The translations under genes were made by a program, and so were the position numbers. From the NCBI GenBank assembly GCA_026874595.1, contig CM049311.1, forward strand, positions 20,830,176 to 20,894,175: a stretch of 64,000 bases of DNA, in the 5' to 3' direction. The notes below the pieces were generated by a model. The model ran no database searches, was not told the DNA's origin, and saw only the letters and a list, made by a program, of their open reading frames with translations. Positions 453 through 47,800 of this stretch are shown here, piece by piece (the stretch's first letter is position 1; every line of letters begins with the position of its first letter). The stretch is from Sipunculus nudus. Taxonomy: Eukaryota; Annelida; Sipuncula; Golfingiida; Sipunculidae.

Positions 453-3400
453 GTAAGTAATGATTGCATGATGTACATGATCCAAGTACAGTCACTCAAT
501 CTGACTAATGGGAACACGGTAAAGAGCAGATTCTCTCTACCAAGGCCTAGTTTTCAAACCAGGGTTTGCAACTTTCACCCAGCAACTGTTTAATAACCTG
601 GGTAAAACCTTGGCTTGGTAAAACAGGTTTAGCTCAGGTATTACCAAAGATTCTTGGGTTTACCACTAATTCCTATTGATTAGAGTTATGTACTTGTGTA
701 AGGTGCAAAGCCAAATAGGAGTTTAAGTGTGAGTTGTAAATGGCATCTTTTAGACAGGGGTGATGTAGTCAGAGCCACTTGGCGTATCACCAATATTCAC
801 AAAATATGTGTATAACTTTGACAAACCAACGAGAAACTAAGAAACTGAGAAACTAAGCTTTTATACTGCAAATAAACATGGGAAATAGCTTTGGCAATAA
901 ACAGGGCAAACCCCTGGAATAAACAATAAAATATTTATTATCTACATTTAAAGCCAGGTTTTACCCACAGGGTTGGGTAAGATAGGTTTTACCCAAGTCA
1001 GATGGGAAATCTAATGCCAACCTGTGCAAAGAATATTGGAATGTCTTTTTATGCCCCCGCCACAAAGTGGCAGGGGCATATAGTTTAACCCATGTCCGTC
1101 ATTCCGTCCTTCCGTCCTTCCGTCATTCCGAAATGAAACAGTTGTACGGACTTTTTTTCGCAATGCCTGCAGATATTGGCCTGATTTTTGGTGTGTGGGC
1201 AGATATAGACCAGTTACAGATCAAGTTCGCGTTTCGTCCCGGTTGACCTACTTTTGACCATTTTACGGCTCCTAAACTTAGAAAATTTCATGAAAAATAG
1301 AAATATTCATGACAGATACACATGTACGGACTTTTTTTCGCAATGCCTGCAGATATTGGCCTGATTTTTGGTGTGTGAGCAGATATAGACCAGTTACAGA
1401 TCGAGTTCGCGTTTCATCCTGGTTGACCTACTTTTGACCGTTTTACGGCTCCTAAACTTAGAAAATTTCATGAAAAATAGAAATATTCATGACAGATACA
1501 CATGTACAGACTTTTTTTCGCAATGCCTGCAGATATTGGCCTGATTTTTGGTGTGTGGGCAGATATAGACCAGTTACAGATCGAGTTCGCGTTTTGTCCT
1601 GGTTGACCTATTTTGACCGTTTTACGGCTCCTAAACTTAGAAAATTTCATGAAAAATAGAAATATTCATGACAGATACACATGTACAGACTTTTTTTTCG
1701 CAATGACTGCAGATATTGGCCTGATTTTTGGTGTGTAAGCAGATATAGACCAGTTACAGATCGAGTTCGCGTTTCGTCCTGGTTGACCTACTTTTGACCG
1801 TTTTACGGCTCCTAAACTTAGAAAATTTCATGAAAAATAGAAATATTCATGACAGATACACATGTACAGATTTTTTTTCGCAATGCCTGCAGATATTGGC
1901 CTGATTTTTGGTGTGTGAGCAGATATAGACCAGTTACAGATCGAGTTCCCATTTCGTCCTGGTTGACCTACTTTTGACCGTTTTACAGCTCCTGAACATA
2001 GAAAATTTCATGAAAAATATGAAATTTCATGACAAATACACATGAACGGTTTTTTTTCTCAGTGCCTGCAGATATTGGCCTGATTTTTGGTGTGTGGACA
2101 GATATAGACCAGTTACAGATCGTGTTCGCTTTTTGTTCTGGTTGACCTACTTTTGACCTTTTTACGGCTCCTAAACTTAGAAATTTTCATGAAAAATAGA
2201 AATATTCATGACAGATACACATGTACAGACTTTTTTCGCAATGCCTGCAGATATTGGCCTAATGTTTGGTGTGTGGGCAGATATAGACCAGTTACAGATC
2301 GAGTTCTTGTTTCGTCCAGGTTGACTTACTTTTGACCGTTTTACAGCTCCTGAACATAGAAAATTTCATGAAAAATGTGAAATTTCATGACAAATACACA
2401 TGTACAGACGTTTTTTTCGCAATGCCTGCAGATATTGGCCTGATTTTTGGTGTCGGCAGATATTGACCAGTTACAGATGGAGTTCACTTTTGTCCCAGTT
2501 GACCTATTTTTGACCGGTTGACGGTGCTCTAACATAGAAAATTTCATAAAAAAGGTGCACATGTATGGACTTTTTTTCGCAGTGCCTGCAGATATGGGCC
2601 TGATTTTTCGTGTGTAGGCAGATAATGACCAGTTACAGATCGAGTTCTTGTTTTGTCTCAGTTGACCTACTTTTGTCCATTTGACTGCTCCTGAACATAG
2701 AAAGTTTCATGAAAAATAAAAATTTTCATAACAAATGCATATGTACTGACTTTTTTTCCTCAATGCCTGCAGATACCACCCTGATTTTTTTTGTGTGGGC
2801 AGATAATGACAGTTACAGATCGAGTTTGCATTTCATCCCGGTTGACCTACTTTTGATTGTTTTACGGATCCTAAACAGAGAAAATTTCATGAAAGACAGA
2901 AATTTTTATGGAAAATGCACATGTATGGACTTTTTTTCACAATGCCTGCATATACTGGCATGATTTTTGGTGTGTTGCTTGATAATGACCCGTTACAGAT
3001 CAAGTTTGCATTTTGCCCTTGTTGACCTACTTTTGACCATACGACACCTCCTGAACTTAAAAATTTTTCAAATTTTACAAATGTTTCTAATTTGCCCAAG
3101 GCGGGGGCATTCATGTCGTTCTGACACATCTAGTTTATATTCACAGTTTCAGCCTTTGCTACCAGTTTGTCTAATAATATGAGGCAAAATTTCTTCTTAT
3201 TCTTTCCAGTCAGTTGTAAATTTTTTCTTGATACAGTTTCCTGTGGAAACACATTATCAAGATGCCTTTACACCTAAATTTTGTATTAGGGTGATTTTAA
3301 CTGACCAGGTAACTCTTTTTCTAAGCTTAACATTAGTACTTGTATTTATGGATAATGATATATGATCTGTGTGATGGTACTCTTTGAATGTACTCAAGAG

Positions 3401-6400: not shown

Positions 6401-9400
6401 ATTTTGCCACAAGAACCAGTCTAGATTTCAGCTGATGAGTCTGACATGAAACAATTCTCACTGAATTAAGACTGCACCGAAACCAAGCCCAAACTCAACA
6501 CCTGAGTTCCCTAAATCACAGTTAACATCAATATCTGATAAAGCATATTAATAAAATACAAAAGTCACAGCTCTCTGGTGACAGATTCACAGGAGACTAA
6601 ACAATGTTCGCAAGTAAATGATAGTAAATAAACCAGATTATATTGTTTAGTGTTCTTTTGACTTTTCTGTGCTGTAGATTCTTAGCTGGAAGTATCTGGC
6701 GGGAGAAGTCATCTTTGGAGGAATCATTACAAGAGGCACTCAGTGATGATAATGTAAGGATGATCTCAAACTCCTACATTAAAGTATGGTGGCTCGTATA
6801 GGACATACACAAAATTATTTTTTATCTCGTTCCCACGCGATAATATCTTGTGGCCACGTGATAATTATCTCATTCCCAAGCATTAGTATCTCTTGGCCAT
6901 GCGATAATTATCTTGTTCCAAGGCGTTCGCCACAAGATACTAACACGTGGGAACGAGATAATTATCGCATTGCCACGAGATACTAACGCCTGGGATCGAG
7001 ATAATTATCGCATGGCCATGAGATACTATCATGAGGGAATGAGATAATTATCATGTGGCCACGAGATACTAACGTGTGGGAACATAATACTATCTCGTGG
7101 GAACTAGATAAAAATAATTTTGTGCATGTCCTATACGAGCCACCGTATTAAAGGGACCCAATCACAAAAAAAAGCATGTTGAATTGACACAAAATAAAAC
7201 TTTTTCCCTTTGAAATAAGTTTGTACCTGCCAAAATATTGCCCTGAAATGGTTAGCTTACTCCTGTAAACAAGTGTTTAAAACAGTTGATCAGGCGCAAT
7301 CACTGGGGTCAACATAACTACAGTGCATGTATCATCTGGGCCACAACGTGTCAATCAGGAGATGCCCTGACTGATTTGGCCCAAATAATGTAAAATATGT
7401 TCTACTGGCTGAAACATGCCATGTTGTGGCTCACAGTCGGACCTCTGGTCACATGGCCTTGTTATGGTAAACAGACACATTCATACTGTGTTTACCAACA
7501 TACAGAACAGTAACAAGCTGTTAAACAGCTGTATATGAGGTACTGAGACTGTGTGCTGGGATGATTTTCCTAGGGAACTTTTGTATAAAGCAAAACTGAA
7601 TTGATATTATGAAATAAAAGGCATAAAATTTTTCCTGATTATGCCCCTTTAAGTCTCTATGTTCCAGTTGATACTCACTTATGATAATATAAAGATGACC
7701 TCAGACTCTCACATTTAAAGGGGCCCAATCACCTATCTGACCTTATAAACTAGAGGTAATTCCTTGGAGCTTTTATAAAATAGGCCAGAAAATTAGGATA
7801 TTACCGCACACAGGCTGCTTGTTTTGTATATATCAACTAGTTTATAATATGTGGGGGCCCGATAAAATAAAACAAATTCAACAAGGGCATCTGGTAGCAG
7901 GTCAGATAAGCCAGAGCTTTGCAAATGGCGTTTTGCAACAAGTGACCTTTCTACCTACCTTTTCAACATTGCTGTGATTATAAACATGTTGTTGATAAAC
8001 AAGTTAATACATCCTTGAAGAAGGCCTTATCAGAACTTTTCACAACCAAAATTTCCTTACGATCATTAAAATATACACAGAGGAAGACAGAAATCATATA
8101 AATTCTTTTCAAAAGGTAGGTGAATGGGCCCCTTTAAGCCCATGTTGTCATTCTGGTACTGTTTCAAGGTCTTATCATATGGACATTATACATGATTGGC
8201 CATTTGAGAGGGATGTTCAAGGGATTAGATTTTACTTCACAAAGGAAAAGGCACCAAGGTTGTTACTTTTATGGCTTAAAATAATATCATTCTTTAAACC
8301 TTAAGGAAATTTAAAGAATAAAACATGGATGGTTGGTTAGTATTTCAAATTAGCACTTTATATTTCTATATTTTAATCAATAAAATACTATTATTATGAT
8401 AAAAGATTATAAAATAATATGTTCACAGCTAAAAAATGACTATTTTTATAGAAATAGTGTCATATCTAATCTTATCTTTATTTTGGAGAAATATCTTAAG
8501 ATGAAATTGAATAAATGAATAATAAGTTAGAATAAATTAATACATAAAATTGCATTTATAGCTTACAAGTATTATTGTAGACTTATCCATGACCTGTTAA
8601 AGTCTGTATATTTTGTTTTAGTACAAGGCCTTTGTGTTACTGATGGAGAGACTGTGTGAGCAGCCGTACTCAGCTCGTGAGAAGGAGTTTATCAGCAGCT
8701 TCCGACAGGACATTCAGTCCCAGAGTCTGCTGCAAGATATCCCTCCAGTAAGTATATATTCAGACTGTGATGACATTGCTTAAAAATACAAAAACAGTCT
8801 TGGGAAACTGCATACTTCCTAATAGGGACACACAAAACTGTTCAGTGAAACTGTGAAATCATATCTATAGTCTGTTCCAGCACCCCTGTCCACCTGTTTT
8901 TTGCGATTATTTTTTTGCGAATCAAAGAAAGCCAACACTTTTTTACCTTAGGGCAGAAAGTTATAAAAGCATAATTAACTATTATGGAAATAATAGACTT
9001 CCTTATGTTATTTTCCTGTAAACAATTTAAAACCATATTATGAGTAACTAGTCTATTCTGTAGCAACTTTCCATTAATGATTCTGTTTATGTCAGTGAAA
9101 ATTAAGATAATAACTGTCATAAGGCAGTTACTTTAATTTTGATATTTCTTACAATAGCCTTGTAGATTGACAGACTAATTCTATCTCTCCCTGTCATTGA
9201 ATACATAGTCTAAACATTGTAGGATATAGAGAAATAGTCTAATGTCATTACATTGATTGCAATATACTCATTCTGTTAAAATACCTGAATGCTCTCACCT
9301 GGTCTTAGGGTCCCCATACATGGATCCCTTTAATTAACATTTTCATAACAATCTGATATCTTAGGAATGGCTGTAGATATCAGCAACAAATTTAACAGGA

Positions 9401-12400
9401 ATATTGATCATGTGATCTATGTAAATTAAAGTTAAAGGTGGTACCACCTTGAAGACTCTCTATGTGAGCTGATATGACTTACTTCACCTTTTTCTGTAGT
9501 TAAGTCAAAAAGAGTAACCACATTTTTTCCCATTCTGTTAATTCCCTAATATGATTCTTTTATATGTTAAAATGAAAATAAAAGACAAAGACAGAACACA
9601 TAACTGAGATGTACAAGCAAGTTTTATTCAAAATACAGATATGAAGAAATGATAAATATATATACAGTATGGTCTGTGAATAAAAAAAATCACAAATATT
9701 ATATCACAACACATTAGCCTGAACATTTACATAACAATATCACAGCAATACATAGCATCACATCCTAGTACCGACTGCTATCCATCAGGTGAGGATGTTT
9801 GCGCCTCCTTGCAATCTCCTTGATGTTCTTGGTGTTTCCAGTTCTCATTCGACGGTTAGCGAACCATTTCTTGACTTGTTCAGGAGTGACACCTCCAGAC
9901 CTGGCAAACATTGCGATGGTCTCCATGTTCGGATATGGATGTTCTTTGTGCAGGATGAACCAGTTCTCCATGATGCGAGTGGCCACAGTGTTGAGTTTGC
10001 TTGTCTTGGATGGGGTAACACTGGCAGGGCGAGGAACGAGTGGCTTAGTAGCACCAACTTGATCTTTCTCCGCGTTCTGACACCACTGTTGAACATAGCT
10101 GATCAGGTTGTTATGACAGTTGTCATAGTACCTGTTGATGCTTGGATGTTGCCATGGTGACAGGATAGATGCACACAGAGCTTGGTGACGATCTTCTTCA
10201 ATCTTAGCAGCTTTAAAAGCGTAGTGATTGCGTATGTCCAGTGACTGTGCCTTGTGATTGGTTCCATAAGCGAGAAGTTGCAGGTTCAGCAAGGGAATGC
10301 GAAGAGAAAGTGGTTGTGCTGCCCCCTGGTAAGACAATTTGAAGTTATGATGGTGTGGATCAACATTTTCTTGTTCCGCATTGAGCTGAGTCATCATTGG
10401 CACACAGCTGGGCAGACCTACTGCAGCAAATGGTACTTTTCTGACCAAAGTATCATTCAGTGACTGGTAATGTTGCTTGACTGGCTTAGACGGGGTCACA
10501 TGTTGAGCCATCATCACTTGATGTACTGTTTGGTTTGCTGGATGGTCTGTGATTGGATCAGCAGGTATCACATGTTGAGCTGTCAGGTTTGTTACTGGTT
10601 CTGTGATTGGTTCAACAGGTGTCACATGATGAGCTGTCAGGTTTGTTACTGGTTCTGTGATTGGTTCAGAAGGTGTCACATGATGAGCTGGCAGGTTTGC
10701 TACTGGTTCTGTGATTTGTTCTGTAGGTGTCACATGATTGACTGGCAGGCTTGCTGCTTGGGCTTGCTCTTGCTTTGAAGCAGTATGTGCAGTCAGGAAA
10801 TCCAGTTCCTGGAGAGCAGACATATCCAGACAAGACAGGTCCATCCTGATCTAGCAGAGATAAGCAGTCTTGGCAGTAAACACTTGTACTGGTGTATGAT
10901 CAGATGTTTACTCAAAATGAGTACTTCTGTTATATCAGTTGAGTTGAGTCAAAGGTGAGCAGTGAGTAGCTATCAGTTGTCTTATCTCATGGAGTATCAC
11001 AAAGTGAATGATGGTGCTCATGATATTATTTGTCTTTAAATATAAACCACCAGCTAGATCAAAGTCAGGGTAAGGCTTTCATCTAATACTTTATACTTGG
11101 CAAACTCTAAACAAGTCCACCTATTTTCTTTGATACAAGGGTGGATAGTTTGTTGTTGCACTGTACTTCATAAGAGTATCATGCTCAGATCTTTTATGTA
11201 TCAAAGGATAAGCGTGAACCAAACTGTACACTGTTGATTTTTACTGCTTTGCTGTCCAAAGATGAAAGGGATTAAAGGACCATTACCTGTGTTCAGTTGT
11301 GTGTGACCACAGTACTCATTTGTGATTAAGTCACAAGAGGTCCCTGATCATTAACTGTTTACCTATGTCCATCCAGGTGTGAAAAAGGTGCTCAGCTAAT
11401 TAAACAGTTCAGGTTGGTCAAAGAGGTTGTTTGTTTACTGGTAGTTGCTCAAAGTTCCTCAGTTATCTGCTCAGGTGAAGTCCACCAGAGATCAGATAGA
11501 TTGTTTATTGTTTACAGTTAATTAATCAGAAAGGTGTTATTATCTGGCAGTCAGCCAGTTCAGGACATCAGGTGAAATCCTGGGAGAATCAGAGGGATAT
11601 ACAACACAACACAACACAACACAACACAACACAACATTTAAAGTCAGTTTTATGAAAAGTACAACATTAGCCAAAGGCTATTATGACTGACTAGCTACAC
11701 ACAAAGTGATAAAACAAATAATTATGACTACTTCACACATATACACACATATGATGGTTATTATAAATAATACAATGAGATGATCATATAGATAACAGTT
11801 AGAAGCATAAAGGCTTACTAGGTTAAAACAGCCTAAAGAGATTAGATTCTGGACTCTGTCCTTGAAAATAATAGAAATACTATCAAATAAGACCTATAAA
11901 ATAGAAAGTTATACAGAACGGAAATTGATTGTTTATAGAACACATGCATTTACTCAAAGCTACTCTTTCATATCCTTATCACTACCCCGTCTCCTCAAAT
12001 TTGGTCACATTATACAGAAGCGGATCCAGGGGGTCAGGACCCCCCCTTTTTCACCTGAAGCAACCTTTTTTAAGGGGTTTTAGACGTAATTTTGCGGCCT
12101 GGACCCCCCCCCCCCCCCTTTTCCAGACGTGATGACCTTTTTTTTTAAGGATTTTTATTAGTCTTCCTGGGTTGGACCCCCCTTTTCCTAAATCCTGGAT
12201 CCGCCCCTGTTATACCCCAGAAACCTCTCAACTATCCACTTTCACATTGCTGAGGGAGCTGTCTTGGCTTGGTTTTGGCTGTTTCTACAGTACAGCTCAG
12301 GTGCTGTCTTTCCTTTTTTTTAGCATTTTTAGAAATACCCCCATGGGTGGTGGTGTCAGTCAGAGTATCATGTATTTATGCATGTTGTATGTTGTAAATG

Positions 12401-12458
12401 TAGTCCAAAATTTGTTATAATTTTTTGCCCTACATTGAAGGCATTGTATCACTTAATA

Positions 12459-12489
<31 letters not shown>

Positions 12490-15400
12490 CATGTGCACAT
12501 GTGTACCTCATACAATATATAAGAATGATTAATATACTAAACTTAATTCTTTTCCAGCTTTTGGAAGATGAGTCAACTGGTAGACGTTATCAGGAAGCTA
12601 CTGGTAAGTGTATTGAAATTGATTAACTTGGATGAAAGCTGCAGAACACCTAAAAAAGTTGCTCATAGGGCATTGGAACTAAGAAATATGGAACAGGTGG
12701 ACTAATTTTATTTTATCAGTCAAGAAATATGAAAAAATTTGCCTGCTGATGGAAGGATAGAAAATATCCGACAGTTCGTGATGCTCCGTGGTGCTGATAA
12801 AAAGCATGAAATCTAATCTATTTTCAGTAATATTCCTTTGAATAATACACATTACATTTTCTTTGAAAGGATTAAAAAGCAAATTTTATATGAGGGACTT
12901 GTTATCTCACAAAAAAATGATCTTTGAAAAAAAGGAGCAAATTGAAGAATTTATTTTTTGCTGTGATCATACTGATCTTTGGCTATCAGATGAAAAATTA
13001 TATAAAAATGTACACATTATAAGCAATATATTTACAGTAATTCCTTATTCTACAAGTTTACCAGAATTGTTGATTTTTCAATCACATTTATATCTTCCAT
13101 TTTTCTATTATTTATTAAAAAAAAAATATATATATTAATCATATGTTTACTAGCCATAAATTACTTATGAAAATGTACCACAGCTGATCTTATTTTGCCA
13201 AAGGGCAAAACAGACAAATGTGGTAATTATCTGACAGCAAAGAAACACTTTTACTTGTATGAATTCCATAATATTAATTTTAGATGAACTATTACAAAAC
13301 AGATATTGGTATTCAGACATTTCTTTGATGGCCCAAAGTGATGATCTTAAACTAGATATAATTGAAAAATCACAGAGATGATGGCACATTGGTATTTGTA
13401 AGCAAAGCATGGCATCCTTAGGAGGTCAGTTTTCTATGCATTCCTTTTAATCCTGTGGAATTTGACATTACTTTGCAAAGGGTCTGTAGCTGCACCATAT
13501 GTCAGAAACTGTGTCAACTGTTTTTATCAGGAGGTGAACTTGGCACATGGTAATGGAAAACCAAGCCCCAGCCGAAGTTCCACTGACCAATCCCATTACA
13601 GGAAAGGGGAATATGCTAGTTATCATAAATTGCCACAAAAGCTCCTGTTAGAAATGTCATGACAAAATAAGGTGGACAGGGGTACTAGAACAGAGTGTAG
13701 GTTTTCTTCTGTGTTACAGGTGGCAGGAAGAATGCCAGAGCCAAGGTGCGAGTATGGGAGAATGGATCTGGTGTATTCACAGTCAACGGGCAGAGTGTGC
13801 TCCACTACTTCCCACACATTGAGGAAAGGTATGTGACAAAAATTATATTTCAATTCAAATAATTTCATTTAATTCAAGAAATTTAATAGACTTGGGAGCA
13901 CTGGGAGATCTCACATCTCTAAAAAATGACAGATCCTTGTTGTTGTCCCAACTTTCTACACATTGTATGACCTATTTGGACAATTTAAATTTGGACAAAA
14001 AATTATTTTAAATAAATTAAATCAACCACAGAACACTTCGCCCAGTTGTGGCACTGTGAAAATTCATAGAGCCAGAGACCTGGGGCCTCCATTTATCTGG
14101 CGGACTGACTAGTGCATGTATCTGCTGTGCTGTATTTGTGTGTCTTTACCAATGGATATACAGGGGTGTTGGGGTGAATGTATTACATTATTTGGACTCA
14201 CTGCCAAAAATAATTTTCTTGAAAATATTACATTTTTTATCCAAAGAAAATTTTGTCTGTTGATAAAAAATCCACAAAATACTTTTGATTTATAGGCAGA
14301 ATGTGTTCTGAAAATATATCTAGATCAAAAGAAAAATTTCCTTCATCATAATTTCCAATATATTACATCTTGTCTTATTCATTTTTGATACCAAGTAAAA
14401 TGATCTTATCAGAAAAAAAAAATGATAAAAAAATATTGTCTTTACCATCACAAGACAGGGGACTGACTATATGTGCCTCAGGGTGGTGTTCAGTAAAACA
14501 TGGAATATCCATGGAAATTCTGAGAAATCTCACAATAAAATTTAGCAAAAATTGCCCTCAGTACGTCAACAAACCAATGATTAAGGCCAGTTAAGGATAA
14601 AAATGAAAAGATTAATGGGCGTTTGATTTGATTGTTCACTTTTTAAACCTCCCAAGTAGGTTCTCAGGTGTAGGAAACATTACCAAGTGACCCTCAGGGC
14701 CCTTTTCATCATGAGGTCAGTCAGTTACAGCCCTTGATGGTGCATGTCTTTACCAACATGTAACACTGATCATTACATTTACACAGAGAACAGCTGATGT
14801 ACCCGCTACAGTTTGTTGACAAGCTGTACGAGGTGGACGTTGAAGCCACCGTGACGGAGAGCGCTGGCAAGGCTGGAGAAGCTGGGGCCATCAGGTTCGC
14901 TACATCGGTCGCCCTGAAAAGTTTTGTTGATTTAGCAACGATGGAAAGAATGAGACTAGGTGAGTACATTATAGAGCAGGAATGGAATTGGGGGGATAGG
15001 TTTAGGGGATATAAAAGTCCCCTTTTACAGGGAGAGATCACCTTTTTTATATACCCACCATCCGTCTGTCCATCTGTCTGTTAACTTATAGTGATAACTT
15101 ACTGGGGCTTTGATGAATTTTCTCGAAATTCACCATAACCACTTTCCAATAGATCATCTCACCTGAGTTTGATTATGGGCAAAATCCATGCATATCTCAT
15201 AAGGTCAGAGGTCACTAGGCTACTTTATGGTGTCGCTGGGATAACCAATGTGGAATACAATGGATTTTGATAAAACTCAGCAGATATTTTAATCAATATA
15301 ATATCTCACCCACGTTTAATTTCCAGCAAAATCCATGCATATTTGATGAGGTTAGAGGTCACCAGACTTTGGAGGCACCATGGGGACTTACCTTAAATCT

Positions 15401-16942
15401 TATGGATTTCCATGAAACTCATTATACATACTAACCAGTAGAGTTTTTTCACCTCATTTAGTTTCTCACCAAAATTCATGCATATTTAATGAGGTCAGAG
15501 GTCACGGATACCCAACATGCATTTTGTGCACCATTTGCGGTGCTCTTGTTTTGCAGTGTTTTTCCAAATTTTTATAGGTTAACCCACCCCTTTTGTGGAG
15601 CTATTGACCTTATCTTTTGGCTTTAATCCCTAGGTATAAACACTAAATCTCTACCTTTCCAAAATTCCTTGGTCCACCATTGGAAAGTTTCAATATATTC
15701 AATTTTCTGTTTTTCAGTGAAAGGTATTGGCATAGTTCTGACTTTCCGCTGGAAAATTTGCCTTTCCTTTAAAGATGGATAAATTTAACAGGCAGAAAGA
15801 CTTTTATTATAACTGGCTCATATCAGACTTGGGGGTTAAAAATTTATAAAAGTAATTTAACATGATTACATTTCCTGTAAATTCTTTGATTATATTTGCA
15901 ATTAACACTAGGTAAAATAATTTTATAGTTAAAAGGGGTAAAACATGCTATTAACATGCACAGTTATGTTTTATATGCAAAAAGGTTTTCAGTCCTTCAC
16001 ACTGAGACATGTTGTTCTATTTTTCCAACAACTGCTGGCACGCTTCCTTTCATTTAATTTTCTTATTTGTTTGCCTTTTTAAAATTTCATTTTGTACACA
16101 TCAGTCAGGATTGATACAAAGATTAGTGATGAATATTGTCAGCAGAGGGCAGCACTTTACTGTAATGAACAACTGAATAAACTGAGTAAATCTCATTCAA
16201 ATTCATGTTTCAGACCAGGCTCTGTATATTTCCAGAAATGAAGTTTAACAAAAAGATGTATCCATAAGCCTGGTATTAAACTGAAATGTTTTTACCACCT
16301 TTTTATGGCTATCCAGCCATGTGTGTAGCACCAAAACATGCACCTAATGCTCAAGCTTACTGCCAAAGGCAGGTTCATATAAAGAACTTCATTACTGGCC
16401 TCTGTGGTCTAGGGATAGAGCACAGGACTCAAAGCCCGGATATTATGATTTTGAATCTGAGCTGAGGCAATGAGAATTTTCACAGTCAGCCTCCACCCAG
16501 GGTTAGCACTCTGCAGGCTTAATTTGATTAAGGCTTGGTCCAATGGCCGTGTTTCATTCACAGACAAGTGTGCCTGTCAGGGGTTCCTCGGGGGTATGCC
16601 CCAGCAATGGGGCTGATTACATACCCAGGGCCTGCAGGTGCAGTTGTCACTGGGCCTGGTTAACACCAGGATAAAAAATGAGAGGAAGTGTGTACTGCTC
16701 TGTCATGTAGTCTGAAACCAGAACTGAATTCTGCAGAAGTACATACTTAGTTAAGTTAGCATTAACAAATTTGGAGGCAGCTACCCCAAACACCAAAATA
16801 TAAAAAAAAATGGATTTAATTGCTGATTGTATGATACAAAGAACATGTTTTCATTATTTGTAGCTGGATTGTTAACTAGGGATCCCAGGAGGAGAGAACG
16901 TAAGAAACCAGGGCAGGCAGGGGCCAGAAAGAAGTTCACTTG
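390..16942 (+). CDS. MRPS9: MRPS9, mitochondrial small-subunit ribosomal protein uS9m (5' partial, ten exons)
   Basis: Ten GT..AG exons on the plus strand join in frame: 390-452, 3423-3453, 3840-3919, 5249-5334, 6678-6753, 8622-8747, 12558-12603, 13720-13828, 14787-14959 and 16864-16942. The product matches animal MRPS9: an early [14 protein letters not shown] stretch, then [19 protein letters not shown], and the conserved S9 core ([44 protein letters not shown]). It ends [19 protein letters not shown], the basic C-terminal tail that enters the decoding region of the small subunit. Phases agree at every junction (0,1,0,2,0,0,1,2,1,2). The protein acts in mitochondrial translation; the import sequence and first part lie upstream of the window. 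The last codons after KFTW need one more exon. A divergent homeobox gene sits antisense inside the intron 8748-12557. Identity is very secure; the 3' end is not. Confidence 0.95.
454..1049. other. MRPS9 intron, no feature seen
   Basis: AT-rich intron sequence directly after the 390-452 exon. It contains a loosely repeated gggtaaaac / ggttttaccc word (near 600, 955 and 990) but no gene or clear element. Confidence 0.5.
1050..3138. repeat. Composite repeat: eleven ~180-bp tandem units between GC-rich ends
   Basis: The unit word gcaatgcctgcagat recurs near 1160, 1340, 1520, 1700, 1880, 2060, 2238, 2419, 2579, 2761 and 2940, a period of about 180 bases. Inner copies near 1150-1900 are almost identical; copies towards 3000 are more diverged. 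The left end is a palindrome (ATGCCCCCGCCAC-aaa-GTGGCAGGGGCAT, 1051-1079) followed by a ccgt-rich stretch (1097-1130); the right end carries GGCGGGGGCAT (3100-3110). The layout resembles bivalve non-autonomous elements that carry a satellite core (the pearl/Helitron-like type), but I cannot name the family. Confidence 0.85.
3139..3422. other. MRPS9 intron, no feature seen
   Basis: AT-rich intron leading to the acceptor at 3422; nothing recognisable. Confidence 0.5.
3423..3453 (+). CDS. MRPS9: MRPS9 micro-exon encoding [10 protein letters not shown]
   Basis: A 31-base exon between tttttgtag and AAAG|gtgaga. It enters in phase 0 and leaves one base (G) that pairs with CC of the next exon to give Ala. 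It corresponds to the HPEEIFP-like linker of human MRPS9, and is too short to stand out as an open frame. Confidence 0.85.
3840..3919 (+). CDS. MRPS9: MRPS9 exon encoding [20 protein letters not shown]
   Basis: Acceptor ttgtag, donor CAT|gtaagt. The peptide has the diagnostic GADGRPF and FYTG-P-YY motifs, equivalent to GEDGRPFHYLFYTGKQSYY in the human protein. Confidence 0.93.
3920..4701. other. MRPS9 intron, no recognised gene
   Basis: AT-rich. A 98-codon open frame at 4341-4637 is not recognised as any protein family and probably arises by chance. Confidence 0.5.
4702..4998 (-). mobile_element. Short internally deleted copy of the AACAAGGGACC repeat family
   Basis: The left end (ttttagcttagctgactata) is the reverse complement of the right end of the 61.1-63.7 kb repeat, and the right end (gacccatgggtcccttgtt) is the reverse complement of that repeat's left end. 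The interior is only about 0.25 kb against 2.6 kb. Confidence 0.65.
4999..6677. other. MRPS9 introns around exon 5249-5334, no further feature
   Basis: Apart from the exon, I see a short local duplication (tctgactactgacatataatcagtcc at about 5140 and again at 5183) and a moderately complex stretch 5500-6600. It contains no recognisable coding or element ends. Confidence 0.45.
5249..5334 (+). CDS. MRPS9: MRPS9 exon encoding [20 protein letters not shown]
   Basis: Acceptor ctctacag, donor GGAT|gtaagt. It carries 28 codons plus two bases; the split Ile codon is completed by the next exon. The segment is charged and probably helical, following the Y-LMH motif. Confidence 0.88.
6678..6753 (+). 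CDS. MRPS9: MRPS9 exon encoding [20 protein letters not shown]
   Basis: Acceptor gctgtag, donor AAT|gtaagg. It corresponds to the human segment [20 protein letters not shown]. A degenerate copy of its 3' border and the following intron bases occurs again at about 7672-7718. Confidence 0.88.
6785..7147. mobile_element. MITE with TIR TAYGGTGGCTCGTATAGGAC and TTAAAG target duplication
   Basis: About 37 bases at each end are inverted copies (TATGGTGGCTCGTATAGGAC on the left; the right end reads back as TACGGTGGCTCGTATAGGAC). TTAAAG stands directly outside both ends (6779-6784 and 7148-7153). The inside is made of alternating gataattatctcgttccc and gatactaacgcgtggg words in both orientations, so the whole 363 bases can fold as a hairpin. 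No coding capacity. Confidence 0.85.
7148..7652. mobile_element. TTAA-flanked TIR element, copy a
   Basis: Begins TTAAAGGGACCCAATCAC and ends TGATTATGCCCCTTTAA, inverted ends bounded by TTAA. The interior matches, in opposite orientation, the copy at 31139-31653. The TTAA target recalls piggyBac-type insertion, but no transposase is present. The MITE 6785-7147 is inserted in its left edge. Confidence 0.7.
7715..8137. mobile_element. TTAA-flanked TIR element, copy b (different interior)
   Basis: Starts TTAAAGGGGCCCAATCACCT and ends AGGTGAATGGGCCCCTTTAA. The ends match copies a and c, but the interior (aactagaggtaattcc..., cctttctacctacc...) does not, so it is a separate subfamily. Confidence 0.7.
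8138..9620. other. MRPS9 introns around exon 8622-8747, no other feature
   Basis: AT-rich DNA. A 92-codon minus-strand open frame at 8842-9120 is low complexity and not recognised. 9421-9620 is the downstream flank of the antisense homeobox gene. Confidence 0.5.
8622..8747 (+). CDS. MRPS9: MRPS9 exon encoding [20 protein letters not shown]
   Basis: Acceptor ttttgttttag, donor CCA|gtaagt. It has 42 whole codons, matching the human YMQFIRLLEKLL...EEEFVQRFR region. It is the last exon before the intron that houses the antisense homeobox gene. Confidence 0.9.
9623..9628 (-). terminator. PolyA signal AATAAA for the nested homeobox gene
   Basis: TTTATT on the plus strand reads AATAAA on the minus strand, 137 bases beyond the stop codon. 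It is the nearest canonical signal after the stop that I can see, giving a short 3' UTR wholly inside the MRPS9 intron. Confidence 0.55.
9765..10844 (-). CDS. Intronless TALE-class homeobox protein, SPILE-like (359 aa)
   Basis: An uninterrupted 359-residue frame nested antisense in an MRPS9 intron. Residues about 277-339 form a homeodomain with the three-residue loop extension of the TALE class: helix 1 [14 protein letters not shown], loop PYP (residues 303-305), and recognition helix [12 protein letters not shown] with W48, F49, N51 and R53 present. Position 50 is Ala and position 52 Arg, unlike WFINARRR of MEIS, PBX, IRX and TGIF, so it fits none of the classical TALE families. A basic tail [14 protein letters not shown] follows. 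Residues 33-104 are four 18-residue repeats; no MEIS, PBC or IRO domain is visible. Molluscs and annelids carry expanded divergent TALE genes (SPILE) acting in early cleavage-stage patterning, and this is the best guess for its family. It probably binds DNA in the nucleus. The start is the first Met of the frame, 32 codons before the repeats. A TATA-like stretch lies about 190 bases upstream and a polyA signal 137 bases after the stop. Confidence 0.88.
   Translation of the reverse strand: MDLSCLDMSALQELDFLTAHTASKQEQAQAASLPVNHVTPTEQITEPVANLPAHHVTPSEPITEPVTNLTAHHVTPVEPITEPVTNLTAQHVIPADPITDHPANQTVHQVMMAQHVTPSKPVKQHYQSLNDTLVRKVPFAAVGLPSCVPMMTQLNAEQENVDPHHHNFKLSYQGAAQPLSLRIPLLNLQLLAYGTNHKAQSLDIRNHYAFKAAKIEEDRHQALCASILSPWQHPSINRYYDNCHNNLISYVQQWCQNAEKDQVGATKPLVPRPASVTPSKTSKLNTVATRIMENWFILHKEHPYPNMETIAMFARSGGVTPEQVKKWFANRRMRTGNTKNIKEIARRRKHPHLMDSSRY
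9828..10016 (-). other. TALE homeodomain coding segment
   Basis: Codons for residues about 277-339 of the nested homeobox protein. Visible key residues are the HPYP loop, W48-F49-A50-N51-R52-R53 and R55. The invariant Asn51 and Arg53 that contact DNA are kept, so the domain looks functional. The specificity residue 50 is Ala. Confidence 0.88.
10533..10748 (-). repeat. Four in-frame 54-bp repeats encoding HVTPxEPITEPV
   Basis: Residues 33-104 of the homeobox protein are four tandem 18-residue units; one reads [18 protein letters not shown]. Units 2 and 3 are nearly identical, the fourth is decayed, and a further partial HVTPSKPV follows. The units are Thr/Pro/Glu rich and probably disordered. 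The matching DNA repeat is 54 bp. Confidence 0.9.
10845..11560 (-). promoter_or_regulatory. Upstream region of the homeobox gene with clustered forkhead-type motifs
   Basis: This 0.7 kb is unusually complex compared with other intron sequence. It holds six RTAAAYA-type forkhead matches: GTAAACA at 10876, TGTTTAC at 10905, 11356, 11432 and 11509, and TGTTTAT at 11502. A TATA-like TTTATATTTAAA on the minus strand lies near 11036-11047. Promoter function is inferred from position and motif density only. Confidence 0.35.
11602..11635. repeat. (ACAAC)n microsatellite
   Basis: About seven uninterrupted copies of a five-base ACAAC unit. Confidence 0.95.
11640..12009. other. MRPS9 intron, no feature seen
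   Basis: AT-rich sequence without recognisable genes or element ends. Confidence 0.45.
12015..12209. mobile_element. GGATCC-ended MITE, copy 1, with TTATA target duplication
   Basis: Starts CAGAAGCGGATCCAGG and ends CCTGGATCCGCCCCTG, inverted ends. TTATA lies directly outside both (12010-12014 and 12210-12214). The interior has long C and T runs. A second copy in the opposite orientation lies at 19201-19385. Confidence 0.78.
12461..12484. repeat. (AT)n microsatellite
   Basis: About twelve AT dinucleotides, 75 bases before the acceptor of the MRPS9 exon at 12558. Confidence 0.9.
12558..12603 (+). CDS. MRPS9: MRPS9 exon encoding [16 protein letters not shown]
   Basis: Acceptor cttttccag, donor ACTG|gtaagt. 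It has fifteen codons plus one base. It links the helical region to the S9 core; human MRPS9 has a similar short linker ending in EGKRKTAKAE. Confidence 0.82.
12604..13719. other. MRPS9 intron, no feature seen
   Basis: Very AT-rich up to 13450, then more complex up to the next exon. Open frames of 60-90 codons on both strands are not recognised. Confidence 0.45.
13720..13828 (+). CDS. MRPS9: MRPS9 exon starting the ribosomal S9 core ([10 protein letters not shown])
   Basis: Acceptor gtgttacag, donor AAAG|gtatgt. It encodes [18 protein letters not shown] followed by [18 protein letters not shown]. This is the signature start of the bacterial/organellar S9 fold (G-RK-A-A-V, then the I-VNG motif). 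Confidence 0.95.
13829..14786. other. MRPS9 intron, no feature seen
   Basis: AT-rich intron; no element ends or protein motifs recognised. Confidence 0.45.
14787..14959 (+). CDS. MRPS9: MRPS9 exon, S9 core ([23 protein letters not shown])
   Basis: Acceptor tttacacag, donor ACTAG|gtgagt. It has 57 whole codons with the conserved S9 AG-AGAIR-A motif, then [13 protein letters not shown]. This part is markedly GC-richer than the flanking introns. Confidence 0.95.
15048..15551 (+). repeat. 0.5-kb dispersed repeat, copy 1
   Basis: Runs from atatacccaccatccgtctg to tttgcggtgctcttgtt. The inside has three or four ~140-base sub-repeats built around gaggtcagaggtcac and caaaatccatgcatat. Copies lie at 18495-18980 (same strand) and 54732-55196 (opposite strand). 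Confidence 0.75.
16398..16720 (+). mobile_element. tRNA-headed SINE, copy 1
   Basis: The head GGCCTCTGTGGTCTAGGGAT then agagcac resembles a tRNA-like A box, and gattttgaatctga a decayed B box. A body with acccagggttagcactctgc and ggcctgcaggtgcagttgtc follows. A related copy lies at about 49700-50035. It is a retroposon, not a functional tRNA gene. Confidence 0.7.
16864..16942 (+). CDS. MRPS9: MRPS9 exon, basic C-terminal tail ([14 protein letters not shown])
   Basis: Acceptor catttgtag, with the conserved [19 protein letters not shown] tail. The family ends two or three residues later (human KFTWKKR). Here the frame runs on to a stop at 17054 with unrelated residues, so a donor at TG|gtcagt (16943) is the likely exon end. 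It would split the Trp codon and leave a tiny final exon. Confidence 0.9.
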
Positions 16943-38800: not shown

Positions 38801-41800
38801 AGAGGCACTACATGTATATATGAACCTTTCTTAGCAGGAATCACCTACAATTCATTTAAATGTTCAAAAGAGTAAGCCAGAAATCATAAAAATAATACAA
38901 ATAAAACAGGTGAGGTGAAAGTCTGTCATGAGCCATGCATACTTTACCTTCTTTCTCACTGTCAACAAAGATGATGTGTTTATTCTGTGGTTTATCTGGG
39001 AAATCCAACAAATGTAGATCAGCCTTCAACTTCTCAATTTTCTGTAGAAGCAAGATAAAGCTGTCTGTAATGTGTCAATTAAAAATAAAACTTTACAATA
39101 ACATTTAAAAGATGGACATTTTGGTTTCTAAAATGATTAAGAAAAGTGTTCTTGGGCAGAATGTTATAGTCTGAAATGCTTGTGTTCAAAATTTTTGTGG
39201 CTTAACATCATTCATTCCTTAAAGGGACCTATTCACATATCACATGTTTTTTCTGTAAAATATTATGGCATCAATATTCCATTCCAAAACTGTTTACTCC
39301 TATACAAAAGTGGAAATAAGCTTGCACCAGGCATGACCACTGGCACAAATCATTGATCATGCCATCTGGTGGCCATACAATGCAACTTCACAAATCAAAA
39401 TTTTTAAGCTTCCAGCCAGTGTTTCTTTTGTGTTTCTTCTTTCATGTTTTGTCTCCTAAGCAGACACAAACAGAACCATAACAATGTATTTAACAGGTAA
39501 TTGGAGGCAGTAAGTCCATGTGTTGGGATGGCTTTGCTTGGAAACTTTTGTATTAGGCCAAAATGAACTGACAGCACAGGGTGAGTCACATATTATTGAA
39601 AATGTTTATATTCCTTCAATTGAAGACAAACCTTTAGGTCTGCACTCCTCTTGTAGTTGATATACTTAAGGTCTTGGGTCTGCATCATTTTCAGCTGTTC
39701 CTCTGTGTACTCCGGAGTTTCATCCTCTGTTTGATGTACACCATCCTTAAAGAAATATAATACAACAGGTCTCAAACAAGTGACCCATGGGCCATGAAAC
39801 TCAGCTGAATTCAACACAGTACATAGTGTAAACTGTGAATTAAACAGTTTCTTCCCCTGATAGAGAACTAAAGAGGAGGTAACAGGGACTCAATGGGAAT
39901 TATTTATTCTCATAGTATATCTTAAAAATAATCATGTATAATTACCTATACAATTTATACATAATAATTAAATTTAAGATTGATAAAATGACATAATAAA
40001 AAGTGTTATAGCATATTTCCCTACCATGCACTTTTGAATTTATTAATAGGTTTGTGTTCCTGTATTGAATTTGACAAAGTAAACTTAGGTACTGGAGCAC
40101 AAAAACTGAATGCTCTTTCACCATATTTGGACAATTCACTCCTATGGGCTGAACCCAGAAACAAAAAGATGCGGTAAGTTTATTGTATAAATGTAGGTGT
40201 AACCCTCTAATTAATACTATCAAAATACATGACACTTATCACCTAATGTTGTAATGTCTGAAAATCTTGATGATGAAACAAAATATTTGTTTCATTTTCA
40301 ACACTATCTCACAGACAAAAATATGTTGTCAGTTAAATTAACAACAGCCATCAGTTGTGAGAAAGATTCAGTTAACAATATAACTCATCATATTGGAAAA
40401 TTACCAAGCATGTTTGTTGAATTTCTGGTCACATTAAATCATGTCTCCCATGGGTTATGTGACTGGCAGGAAAATTTATACATATTCCTTACTGATAATT
40501 CCTCAGTTATAGCACAATTTTAAATAGCCAATTTTATTCAGCAATATTACTGAAATAGGACAGATGACCAAGGCAGTGCAGTTTTCTGCATGACTAGCAC
40601 CACAACTCGAAGTAGGCCATATTATTCCATGTTACAATAAATGAATACTGAGTGTATTCACGGCATGATCAAAGCATCTATTTAAAGGATCATATGTATA
40701 ATAAATTAATTTGCTTTGCTTTTAATTTATTTTACCTGAGATAAAGCTGACATTCTCTTTTTAAATGATTATGTCAGCCAATAGTTATACATAAACTCAG
40801 TAGAGCACAAGCCTTTGCCAAGAGATAGACAGTCCTGCTGGATTCACTTGATCCTTTATCCGGCTCTGTATCAAAATGTAATGTTCTATCGACCAGCTTA
40901 CTAATTTAGTGTATATGGTGGTGCTAACAAAAGTGACAGACAAGAGTGGAAACATAACCTCCTTGACAAAGGATATCGCAAAATTCATGTGAAAACGTAC
41001 AGTATCCAGAAAGGCTATAAAGGATCTCTAAAAATAAACTTAACATGGGGGTGAGACTCACCCAGTGATTAATTACTGCATAGAAAAAACTGCTCTAGGT
41101 ATTTACAAGACAGTGTGATTTAAGATATCAGATTTTACATTGCTACCTGGACATACAAGTTATATGCAGATAAACAATCATATTACTCACTTATCTTTCA
41201 TGCAATTAGAATAAATCTTCAATTACATTTGCAAATCAAGATATATTGAATTCATTTGTTGCCTGATAGTGATAAAATAGTGATAAAAGAGAAGCATAAA
41301 ATATATGTATAATGCATTCTGTAGTCTTGATGAGGAAGTGTGAACAAGCCATACGTATTAAAACATAAGTGTCAAGATGACACCTGTAGTGACACCTATA
41401 GCCATCACTGCCACTTTATCTCCCATCAACCACACAACAACATGGTTCCTTGACCACCTGTCTGTGAGGCACAATAGCAGTTAGAGCAAGTCTAATGCCT
41501 TGTAGACTGTGGATGTGCTCCTAAAACCACATTAAGACAACACAAGCTGTGGTTATTGAATAGTAGACAAACCTTTCTTCTCTATTCATTGCTAGCTCTG
41601 CTATATTAACCCAACTAGAAAGGGAGCATGTCTCAGAACATTACATATATATTACTTTTGGATAAGTATCATTAATCAAGTTCAGCTATTTTACTCATGT
41701 GTACGAATTGATTTGTCACCACCAAATTTGAGGGAGACAGTGGACAAGTGAAGCAGTATCTTCAGTTTATCTACAAACCTAAATACAATGTACTGTTTTG

Positions 41801-44800: not shown

Positions 44801-47800
44801 ACGGTTCCCTGATTCATTATGTATACATACATTAGCAGTGGTATATAGATGGCTATGATATGTTAGAACAATGACGAGCCCAGCTGCGAGAACAAAGAGA
44901 CAAGGTGGCCAAGTATGGTCCTCACTGGCAGATATCATCTGGCCGTGTCATCACCAGTAAATACCGCGTTCCATATCCCTGTTCCTACAGAGCTGTCCCT
45001 GCCAACATTCAGTCCATATCTTCATATGATACTCCCTTTTGATGGGATATTTAATGCCACCTTATCAACAAGCGACCAAAACTGACTGGTTTCATGCACG
45101 GTGTACCTTCCTGGGGAAATAACACTGAGTACGAAAAACTCGGAGCCTCGATGTGGCCACCTGCGAGAGAAGCGTCAGACATACGCTCCACTGTGAATCA
45201 AACTTCCTTCAAGCCAGCCTCTCTAATTTCCTCGCAAATAAAACAGGTATAAATGAAGTGTGGGGAAAACCGACCAGCTTGCCATACACAAATGAATAAT
45301 TTAATGACTGTCAGATCCAATGCATGGAGAAAAATATCATCAATGAATGTTTGCCATCACTTTTTATTACCACAAAAAAAGGAAAGCCCAGAGCTTCTCT
45401 GGTAATGTCAAACTGCTCCAAGAAATTTTTTCCTTATGTTGTTAAAGATGGCCTGCTAAAAATATACTGCCTATTTAAATTGCAAAACTGACTCCAATGT
45501 CATCAAGTGCACAATACAAGCCCCATAAGAAGTATCTAAATTCCCTGTGACATGACAATTAGGTCTTTGTCCATGTTTATAAATCAGCCATGTAACCAGA
45601 ATATGTTACGCTACCACATCTGTCCTTGTTTAAAGTACTTTAGAAACAAAAGTTTATAAAGCAATAATAAATATGAGGACTGTCCTTATCTTGGTCTAAA
45701 ATGTTTCCACATGTCATTGAGTAAATGATTAATGTGTTCTCTGCCCAATCTGAATGACAACTATTAATCGCTTCTATACACAAGTGACATCTAAACACAA
45801 TTTTAACTAAATATGAAAAACTACTAAAATATTTTCTATAGTGCCCAACCCATTCCCAAACTTGAATTTCAGAAACATGTATTATGGTTCATGATGGCAA
45901 AATTTTGGTAAACTACTTCATACAAAATTCATGAAATCATCAAAGAATTTACCCCGACCTATTCCGGTGAGGAGACCCATAGGGTATACTTATTAAAAAG
46001 TGAACCTGAGTAAAGGTCGCATTCCATACATGTGTATGCAGTACGTTTGCATTATGTATGCATATGTAGCTAGAAATCACACCCATTATAATCCTTCAGA
46101 GTGATTCAATAATTACGTATATGTAATATACGTATGTATGGATTCACTCTGAAGGATTATAATGGGTGCGATTTCTAGCTACATATGCATACGTACTGCA
46201 TACACATGAATGCATGTAACAGATGGTCCAAACATGAATGCATGCACAGATGGTCTAAACTTGAATGCATGTAACAGATGGTCAAAACATGATGCATGTC
46301 ATAGATGGTCTAAACATATATGCAAGTCAAAGTTGGTCTAAACATGAATGCATGTCACAGATGGTCTACACATGAATGCACATGTCACAGATGGTCTAAA
46401 CAAGAATGCATGTAACAGATGGTCTGAACATGAATGCATGTCACAGATGGTCTCAATATGAATTCAAGTCACAGATGGTCTCAATATGAATGAATGCAAG
46501 TCACAGCTGGTCTAAACATGAATGTATGTCACAGATGGTCTAAACATGAATGCAAGTCACAGATTGTTTCAATATGAATGCAAGTCACAAATGGTCTAAA
46601 CATGAATGCATGTCACAGATGGTCTAAACATGAATGCATGTCACAGATGGTCTAAACATGAATGCATGTCACAGATGGTCTAAACATGAATGTATGCCAC
46701 AGATGGTCTAAACATGAATGCAAGTCACAGATGGTTTCAATATGAATGCAAGTCACAAATTTTCTAAACATGAATGCATGTCACAGATTGTCTGAACATG
46801 AATGCATGTCACAGATGGTCTAAACATGAATGCATGTCACAGATGGTCTCAATATGAATGCAAGTCACAGATGTTCCAAACATGAATGCAAGTCACAGGT
46901 GGTCTCAATATGAATGCAAGTCACAGATGGGTCTAAACATATATGTATGTCACTTGATGGTCTGAACAAAAATGCATGTCACTTGGTGGTCTATATATTA
47001 ATGCATGTCACTTGATGGTCTAAACATGCATGCATGTCACAGATGGTCTAAACATGAATGCATGTCACAGATGGTCTAAACATGAATGGTCTAAACATGT
47101 AATGTTAATTCCAGGTGGTCTAAAAACTAAATGTCAGTCCCACATGGTATAAAAACTAATGTCAGTTCCAGATGGTCTAAAATTATTGTCAGTCACAGAT
47201 GCTCAAAAACTTATGTTAGTCAAATATGGTCTAAAAACTTATGTCAGTCACAGATGGTCTAAAAATTAATGTCAGTCACAGATGGTCTAAAAACTTATGT
47301 CAGTCACAGATGGTCTAAAAACTTATGTCAGTCACAGATGGTCTAAAAATTAATGTCAGTCACAGATGGTCTAAAAAACTTATGTCAGTTCCAGATGGTC
47401 TAAAAACTTATGTCAGTCACAGATGGTCTAAAAATTAATGTCAGTCACAGATGGTCTAAAAACTTATGTCAGTCACAGATGGTCTAAAAACACATGTTAG
47501 TGCCAGATGGTCTACAAACTAAACACTGCAAGTGTCAGTCTTTCCATATAACAATTAATGACTGGGTTCATGTCCAAGTACATGTGCTTTTCATGATACA
47601 GTGAAACTCCTTCCTGCAGACAACCCAGTAAGATCAAAAACTCACTAATGCGGACACTAAATCTCAGTCCCTTCATATTTGCCTGTCTATTATGTTAAAC
47701 GTAACTAAGAAAAGCAGACAACTCACTATCCCTGACAAACTTTCCCGTCCTGCCTGCATATCCATACATTTTCGGACCCTCTAAAGCAAACAGTTGTTGT

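What the first reader, a model, noticed from the sequence alone, without database searches (positions are those of the whole stretch)
9765..10844. Divergent intronless TALE homeobox gene nested antisense in an MRPS9 intron
Seen: one clean 359-residue frame with a TALE homeodomain (PYP loop, W48/F49/N51/R53 kept), no introns, a polyA signal, all inside a 3.8-kb host intron on the other strand. Known: spiralians have an expanded group of fast-evolving TALE genes (SPILE) used in early embryonic patterning. Inferred: this is a SPILE-type gene, possibly a retroposed or tandemly born copy. Nesting in a housekeeping host could affect its regulation.
Basis: partly seen in the sequence, partly recalled or inferred. 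Interest (0 to 1): 0.72.

Follow-up and report, generated by a model that had tools for sequence, protein, structure and literature searches.

The report
Divergent TALE homeobox gene inside MRPS9
An uninterrupted gene for a fast-evolving TALE-type DNA-binding protein sits backwards inside an intron of a mitochondrial ribosomal protein gene; it looks like another member of the known mollusc/spiralian-specific TALE group and not a new kind of gene.

Summary
A 359-codon frame lies at 9765-10844 (-), the only frame of 150+ codons in the window. Pfam Homeobox_KN matches at 6.5e-11; a modest AF2 model (mean pLDDT 65) shows a homeodomain whose first 20 Foldseek PDB rows are TALE proteins; period-3 signal supports coding. 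It lies antisense in a 3810-bp intron (8748-12557) of MRPS9, whose six joined exons match Ribosomal_S9 at 1.9e-30. AATAAA lies at 9628. The homeodomain is at most 39% identical to 13 recalled TALE references and falls in no classical family with support; Irx and Mkx are weakly rejected, Pbx and Meis are not. It carries QVKK, reported for mollusc TALE clade VI (PMC5322547) and present in 0 of the 13 references. Best reading: an early-embryonic TALE clade VI / SPILE A/C-type transcription factor. Membership is not proven: no SPILE sequences were on hand, PADRE domain and expression were untestable, and the own-genome search did not complete (ten tries). Retroposition has no positive evidence beyond the intronless frame. 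New member of a known kind.

The parts
9765..10844 (-). TALE homeobox coding sequence, 359 aa, stop included
9822..10007 (-). TALE homeodomain (aa 280-341)
   Evidence: Pfam Homeobox_KN 6.5e-11 over aa 295-334, phmmer PBX1/MEIS in the PDB, AF2 helices and Foldseek TALE matches
9867..9878 (-). QVKK motif (aa 323-326) at the start of the recognition helix region
   Evidence: motif reported for TALE clade VI in PMC5322547; in 0 of 13 recalled references
10050..10352 (-). [quoted passage not shown] helices in a low-confidence model
   Evidence: position only and AF2 model with pLDDT under 50 there; homology to PADRE not testable; the letters PADRE do not occur in the protein
10521..10736 (-). four in-frame 54-bp (18-aa) repeats, about HVTPxEPITEPVxNLTAH (aa 37-108)
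9623..9628 (-). AATAAA polyadenylation signal, followed by T/GT-rich sequence
11034..11046 (-). TATA-like AT-rich box about 190 nt upstream of the ATG (speculative)
   Evidence: read by eye
8748..12557 (+). host MRPS9 intron that encloses the gene, 3810 bp
6678..6753 (+). MRPS9 upstream exon
8622..8747 (+). MRPS9 exon on the 5' side of the intron
12558..12603 (+). MRPS9 exon on the 3' side of the intron
   Evidence: one search had cut it one base short
13720..13828 (+). MRPS9 exon, start of the S9 domain
14787..14959 (+). MRPS9 exon, S9 domain
16864..16942 (+). MRPS9 exon near the 3' end; its end is tentative (donor GTCAGT)

Best explanation
It is an intact, protein-coding gene for a lineage-specific TALE homeodomain transcription factor of the mollusc TALE clade VI / SPILE A/C type, living as an independent unit with its own polyadenylation signal (and presumably its own promoter) on the opposite strand of an MRPS9 intron. 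Shown: the frame, the homeodomain, the nesting, the polyA signal and the QVKK match. Inferred: the protein binds TALE-type sites through N51, R53 and R55 of the recognition helix, its N-terminal part (18-aa repeats, then a candidate PADRE region) serves as a fast-evolving regulatory or interaction segment, and the gene is switched on briefly in early cleavage to help specify blastomere fates, as expression patterns suggest for SPILE A/C genes of a mussel.
For: Intact frame and coding signal; TALE homeodomain by profile, structure prediction and fold match; at most 39% identity to 13 recalled TALE references and no supported grouping with any; QVKK, named for TALE clade VI in PMC5322547 passages and in 0 of the 13 references; one homeodomain in the protein with 279 residues before it, fitting A/C and not the two-homeodomain B clade (PMC8524836); 7 or 8 A/C genes per bivalve, many of them not in tandem, so a lone copy is not odd; oyster TALE9-13, listed as clade VI by Paps et al. 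(TALE10 re-classed later), are among the novel TALE genes expressed from egg to blastula; blastomere-specific expression of mussel A/C genes from the 4-cell stage.
Against: No SPILE or TALE clade VI sequence could be compared, so the link rests on one four-residue motif plus architecture. Paps et al. mark clade VI as without monophyletic support. AU tests do not reject grouping with Pbx (p 0.22) or Meis+Pknox (p 0.39), and in the animal-only tree it sits beside Pbx/Exd at 53/89. The letters PADRE are absent and the PADRE region is unproven. Between repeat units pN is above pS in 6 of 6 (non-independent) pairs, so that part shows no constraint. Source organism and expression unknown.
Confidence: 0.7

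Rival explanations
1. A lineage-specific, fast-evolving duplicate of a classical TALE gene (Pbx or Meis/Pknox), not a SPILE gene.
For: Best PDB sequence matches are PBX1, then MEIS; Pbx and Meis+Pknox grouping not rejected; highest identity MEIS1 at 39%, PBX1 38%.
Against: No PBC or MEIS/PREP N-terminal domain is listed by Pfam at E up to 1; [12 protein letters not shown] differs from QVSNWFGNKRIR and QVNNWFINARRR; human and fly members of these families differ little from each other in the recalled alignment, this one greatly.
Confidence: 0.15
2. About origin, and compatible with the best explanation: a retrocopy. An mRNA of a TALE gene was reverse-transcribed into the MRPS9 intron and kept as an intronless gene.
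For: Coding frame without introns, in an unrelated host intron.
Against: No A-tract beyond the polyA signal; the longest direct repeat shared by the flanks is 8 nt, where 20 shuffles gave 8-11; a parent gene could not be sought because the genome search did not complete. An old retrocopy would have lost these marks, so this is not excluded.
Confidence: 0.25
3. A recently dead or silent copy whose frame has not yet decayed.
For: pN above pS in 6 of 6 comparisons of repeat units; one oyster gene placed in the A/C clade, CgTALE6, has very low expression at all stages (PMC8524836).
Against: Frame, key homeodomain residues, start context (A at -3, G at +4) and polyA signal are intact; period-3 signal remains in the unique part; the repeat period is a multiple of three.
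Confidence: 0.1

Closest known systems
TALE clade VI (Paps et al. 2015) / SPILE A/C clade (Phuangphong et al. 2021)
   Same: divergent TALE homeodomain with QVKK, single homeodomain, long N-terminal part, apparently a dispersed copy
   Different: PADRE domain not demonstrated; 18-aa tandem repeats in the N-terminus; nesting in MRPS9 not met in what I read (the word intron occurs 0 times in the main text of PMC8524836, and of PMC5322547; MRPS9 0 times in PMC6118893)
PBC family (Pbx/extradenticle)
   Same: TALE homeodomain, best phmmer match, similar fold
   Different: 37-38% identity in the homeodomain, other recognition-helix residues, no PBC domain listed
Meis/Pknox family
   Same: TALE homeodomain, 33-39% identity
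   Different: no MEIS N-terminal domain listed, WFANRRMR instead of WFINARRR
Intronic nested antisense genes in general (recalled)
   Same: separate gene inside a host intron on the opposite strand
   Different: nothing beyond the particular pair of genes

Membership tests
TALE class homeobox | homeodomain with three extra residues between helices 1 and 2, usually PYP | tested here: met
   HPYP at the expected place in the alignment, Homeobox_KN 6.5e-11, TALE proteins in the first 20 Foldseek rows
TALE clade VI / SPILE A/C | QVKK within the homeodomain (conserved or semi-conserved, PMC5322547) | tested here: met
   aa 323-326; 0 of 13 recalled references have it
TALE clade VI / SPILE A/C | PADRE domain of about 87-90 aa N-terminal to the homeodomain | not testable with these tools
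   no PADRE sequence or model available; supplements capped at 0 look-ups; aa 165-265 is only a candidate by position
TALE clade VI / SPILE A/C | groups with SPILE A/C sequences in a homeodomain tree | not testable with these tools
   no SPILE sequences held; own-genome search unanswered
SPILE B clade | two homeodomains | tested here: not met
   one homeodomain stretch in the protein, no second above threshold in the window; an upstream or downstream exon with a divergent second one is not strictly excluded
SPILE (all clades) | expression in early cleavage | not testable with these tools
   no RNA data
Irx or Mkx | groups with Irx/Mkx homeodomains | tested here: not met
   AU p 0.025 and 0.027 with 14 rows, 0.046 and 0.045 with 11 rows; weak rejection, no correction for several tests
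Tgif | groups with Tgif homeodomains | tested here: inconclusive
   AU p 0.103 and 0.069; 23-25% identity
Pbx (PBC) or Meis/Pknox | groups firmly with these homeodomains | tested here: inconclusive
   AU p 0.22 (PBC), 0.39 (Meis+Pknox), 0.20 (Meis); beside PBC at 53/89, Meis+Pknox p 0.57
Pbx (PBC) or Meis/Pknox | PBC or MEIS/PREP N-terminal domain | tested here: not met
   hmmscan of the 359 aa against Pfam-A at E up to 1 lists two homeodomain models and two weak others, Het-C and LutB_C
retrogene | A-tract and target-site duplication | tested here: not met
   old copies lose both

The most novel reading that the evidence does not exclude
The nesting is functional: maternal or housekeeping transcription through MRPS9 suppresses the antisense TALE gene, so that a drop in host transcription in particular blastomeres times its brief zygotic expression, making host-intron position part of the cell-fate switch.
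Probability: 0.05. Interest if true: 0.65.

Novelty: new member of a known kind. Interest (0 to 1): 0.3.

Why it matters
Expansion of lineage-specific TALE genes is proposed to underlie changes in spiral-cleavage cell fates (PMC8524836), and their orthology is hard to settle from some 60 residues. A copy anchored inside a conserved host gene gives a fixed position by which orthologues could be traced across species independently of the poorly resolved tree, and it is a case for testing how such genes disperse.

Tried and rejected
Relatives: the whole protein was sought in viral contigs (no pattern match) and the homeodomain in genome contigs (0 of 124 pattern matches confirmed) and viral contigs (0 of 38). 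These are prokaryotic and viral collections, so absence says nothing.

A second TALE domain in the window: a profile search of all 2169 six-frame pieces of 20+ aa put two above the inclusion threshold, this gene and a piece of the antisense frame over its own repeats (10464-10775 +, E 0.0077, best domain E 1, taken as chance); 16 more pieces scored E 1.6-9.8. The profile contained the window's own homeodomain, so its own score there is by construction. A pattern scan also gave FFANQRK at 8857-9018 (+), taken as chance.

Selection within the repeats: four short units, pN above pS in 6 of 6 pairs, too few sites to say more than 'no constraint seen'. Whole-protein AF2 model: mean pLDDT 39.5, not used for a fold search. 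Rfam at gathering thresholds: 0 matches in the window.

Literature: seven searches. Two papers in the library hold 'SPILE gene'. Judging by the titles and abstract starts listed, none is about a TALE gene in MRPS9; the ten listed of 217 papers each had 0 occurrences of MRPS9. What I saw of the papers: PMC8524836 abstract, sections 3 and 9 in full, part 1 of 2 of sections 4 and 10, and passages; PMC6118893 abstract, part 1 of 2 of section 11, and passages; PMC5322547, PMC7566022 and PMC10225672 passages only.

Full report
Observation. The frame at 9765-10844 on the minus strand is real: 359 codons and a stop, the only frame of 150 or more codons in the window under stop-to-stop reading. Sixty simulated windows with the same dinucleotide steps had a longest frame of at most 221 codons, mean 139, against 361 here. 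Outside the repeats (codons 111-359) the period-3 signal is 4.97; 0 of 2000 random, overlapping 750-nt segments elsewhere in the window reach it, maximum 3.73. GC is 47.1% in the frame against 30.8% and 37.1% in the flanking parts of the intron. The ATG has A at -3 and G at +4, and AATAAA lies at 9628 on the minus strand, followed by T/GT-rich sequence.

Homeodomain. Pfam gives Homeobox_KN at 6.5e-11 and Homeodomain at 1.5e-7. In the PDB the best sequence matches are PBX1 (5.7e-8), then MEIS, extradenticle and, weaker, PKNOX1 (3.2e-5). An 80-residue stretch (aa 270-349), folded without an alignment, has mean pLDDT 65.1 and pTM 0.47, with 10-residue block means of 74-79 over residues 21-60 and four helices, the first three placed as in a homeodomain. 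Foldseek lists 437 PDB matches at E up to 10, none at 0.001 or better; the first 20 rows are TALE chains (Exd, Meis, Pbx, TGIF1, PKNOX1; chains of mixed complexes identified through), best E 7.5e-3, TM by target up to 0.89 among them. The full-length model is poor (mean pLDDT 39.5); its helices at 179-198, 212-227 and 234-260 are only a hint of a folded region.

Host. The two + strand exons around the gene alone match mitochondrial ribosomal protein S9 / uS9m at 1.9e-4. Six exons with AG/GT edges join in one open frame of 202 residues (in one search one exon had been cut a base short) and match Ribosomal_S9 at 1.9e-30.

Family. Against 13 TALE homeodomains that I recalled (TGIF1, PBX1 and PKNOX1 checked against PDB text) identity runs from 23% to 39%, highest MEIS1 and PBX1. 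In the 14-row tree it has a long branch and no starred neighbour; its nominal sister is yeast MATalpha2 (70/80), itself the longest branch, so long-branch attraction is likely. Leaving out MATalpha2 and two plant rows puts it beside Pbx/Exd at 53/89, not starred. AU tests: Irx 0.025 and Mkx 0.027 (14 rows), 0.046 and 0.045 (11 rows); Tgif 0.10 and 0.07; PBC 0.22; Meis+Pknox 0.39 and 0.57; Meis alone 0.20. So it is in no classical family firmly, but descent from Pbx or Meis is not excluded.

The positive lead is QVKK. Paps et al. 2015 (PMC5322547, passages) name QVKK among short conserved or semiconserved motifs, within TALE clade VI, a group they restrict to Mollusca and mark as without monophyletic support. 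It is present here and in 0 of the 13 references. Phuangphong et al. 2021 (PMC8524836) give most SPILE A/C genes a PADRE domain, while each B-clade gene has two homeodomains; they also find PADRE-like regions in D-clade and most B-clade genes, so PADRE alone would not decide the clade. That clade VI falls broadly in A/C is my reading. Here one homeodomain is found with 279 residues before it, room for a PADRE domain at aa 165-265, but I could not test for it; the letters PADRE do not occur in the protein. The 2021 paper reports seven or eight A/C genes per bivalve, many not in tandem, and in the mussel D-, C/D- or macromere-restricted expression of several from the 4- to 16-cell stages. [quoted passage not shown]

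N-terminus. Residues 37-108 are four 18-aa units from an in-frame 54-bp repeat. pN exceeds pS in 6 of 6 pairs of units (for example 0.28 against 0.26 for units 1 and 4; about 14 synonymous sites per pair). This fits a fast-changing linker; it is no evidence of constraint.

Origin. No mark of retroposition was found beyond the intronless frame: no A-tract near the polyA signal and only an 8-nt direct repeat between the flanks, where 20 shuffles gave 8-11. No second TALE domain scores above threshold elsewhere in the window. 'Intronless' holds for the coding frame; an acceptor-like CTGCTAG just upstream of the ATG leaves a 5' exon possible.

Mechanism. The likely role is a sequence-specific transcription factor: W48, F49, N51, R53 and R55 are kept, position 50 is A as in the Irx and Mkx rows, and K46-K47 replaces S/N/C followed by N/T in the classical animal rows (residue numbering and DNA contacts recalled). 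Brief early-embryonic expression is inferred from the group. Host transcription could interfere with the antisense gene; nothing here tests that.

Limits. The source organism is not identified by any search; 'mollusc' follows from the family assignment alone. The own-genome search did not complete ten times.

Noticed in passing
window 1143-3066: Tandem array of a 180-bp unit, 10.8 copies, 86% matches.
   Followed up: no
window 39596-39889 (-): Exon-like frame matching Pfam Utp11 over residues 48-97 (E 5.3e-7, above the curated cut-off), so a UTP11 gene probably lies on the minus strand there.
   Followed up: partly
window 12020-12209: Short element in the same MRPS9 intron with inverted ends sharing GCGGATCCAGG and runs of C and T inside, MITE-like.
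   Followed up: partly
window 46204-47522: Large minisatellite of 28-bp units, two adjoining rows of 31.3 and 15.6 copies.
   Followed up: no
window 52845-53284: Two copies of a 220-bp unit at 99% matches, a very recent duplication or an assembly effect.
   Followed up: no
window 6822-7083: Two stretches of 43-bp repeats rich in GGCCACG and GAGATAA-like words; I recall similar ones from bivalve genomes, unchecked.
   Followed up: no
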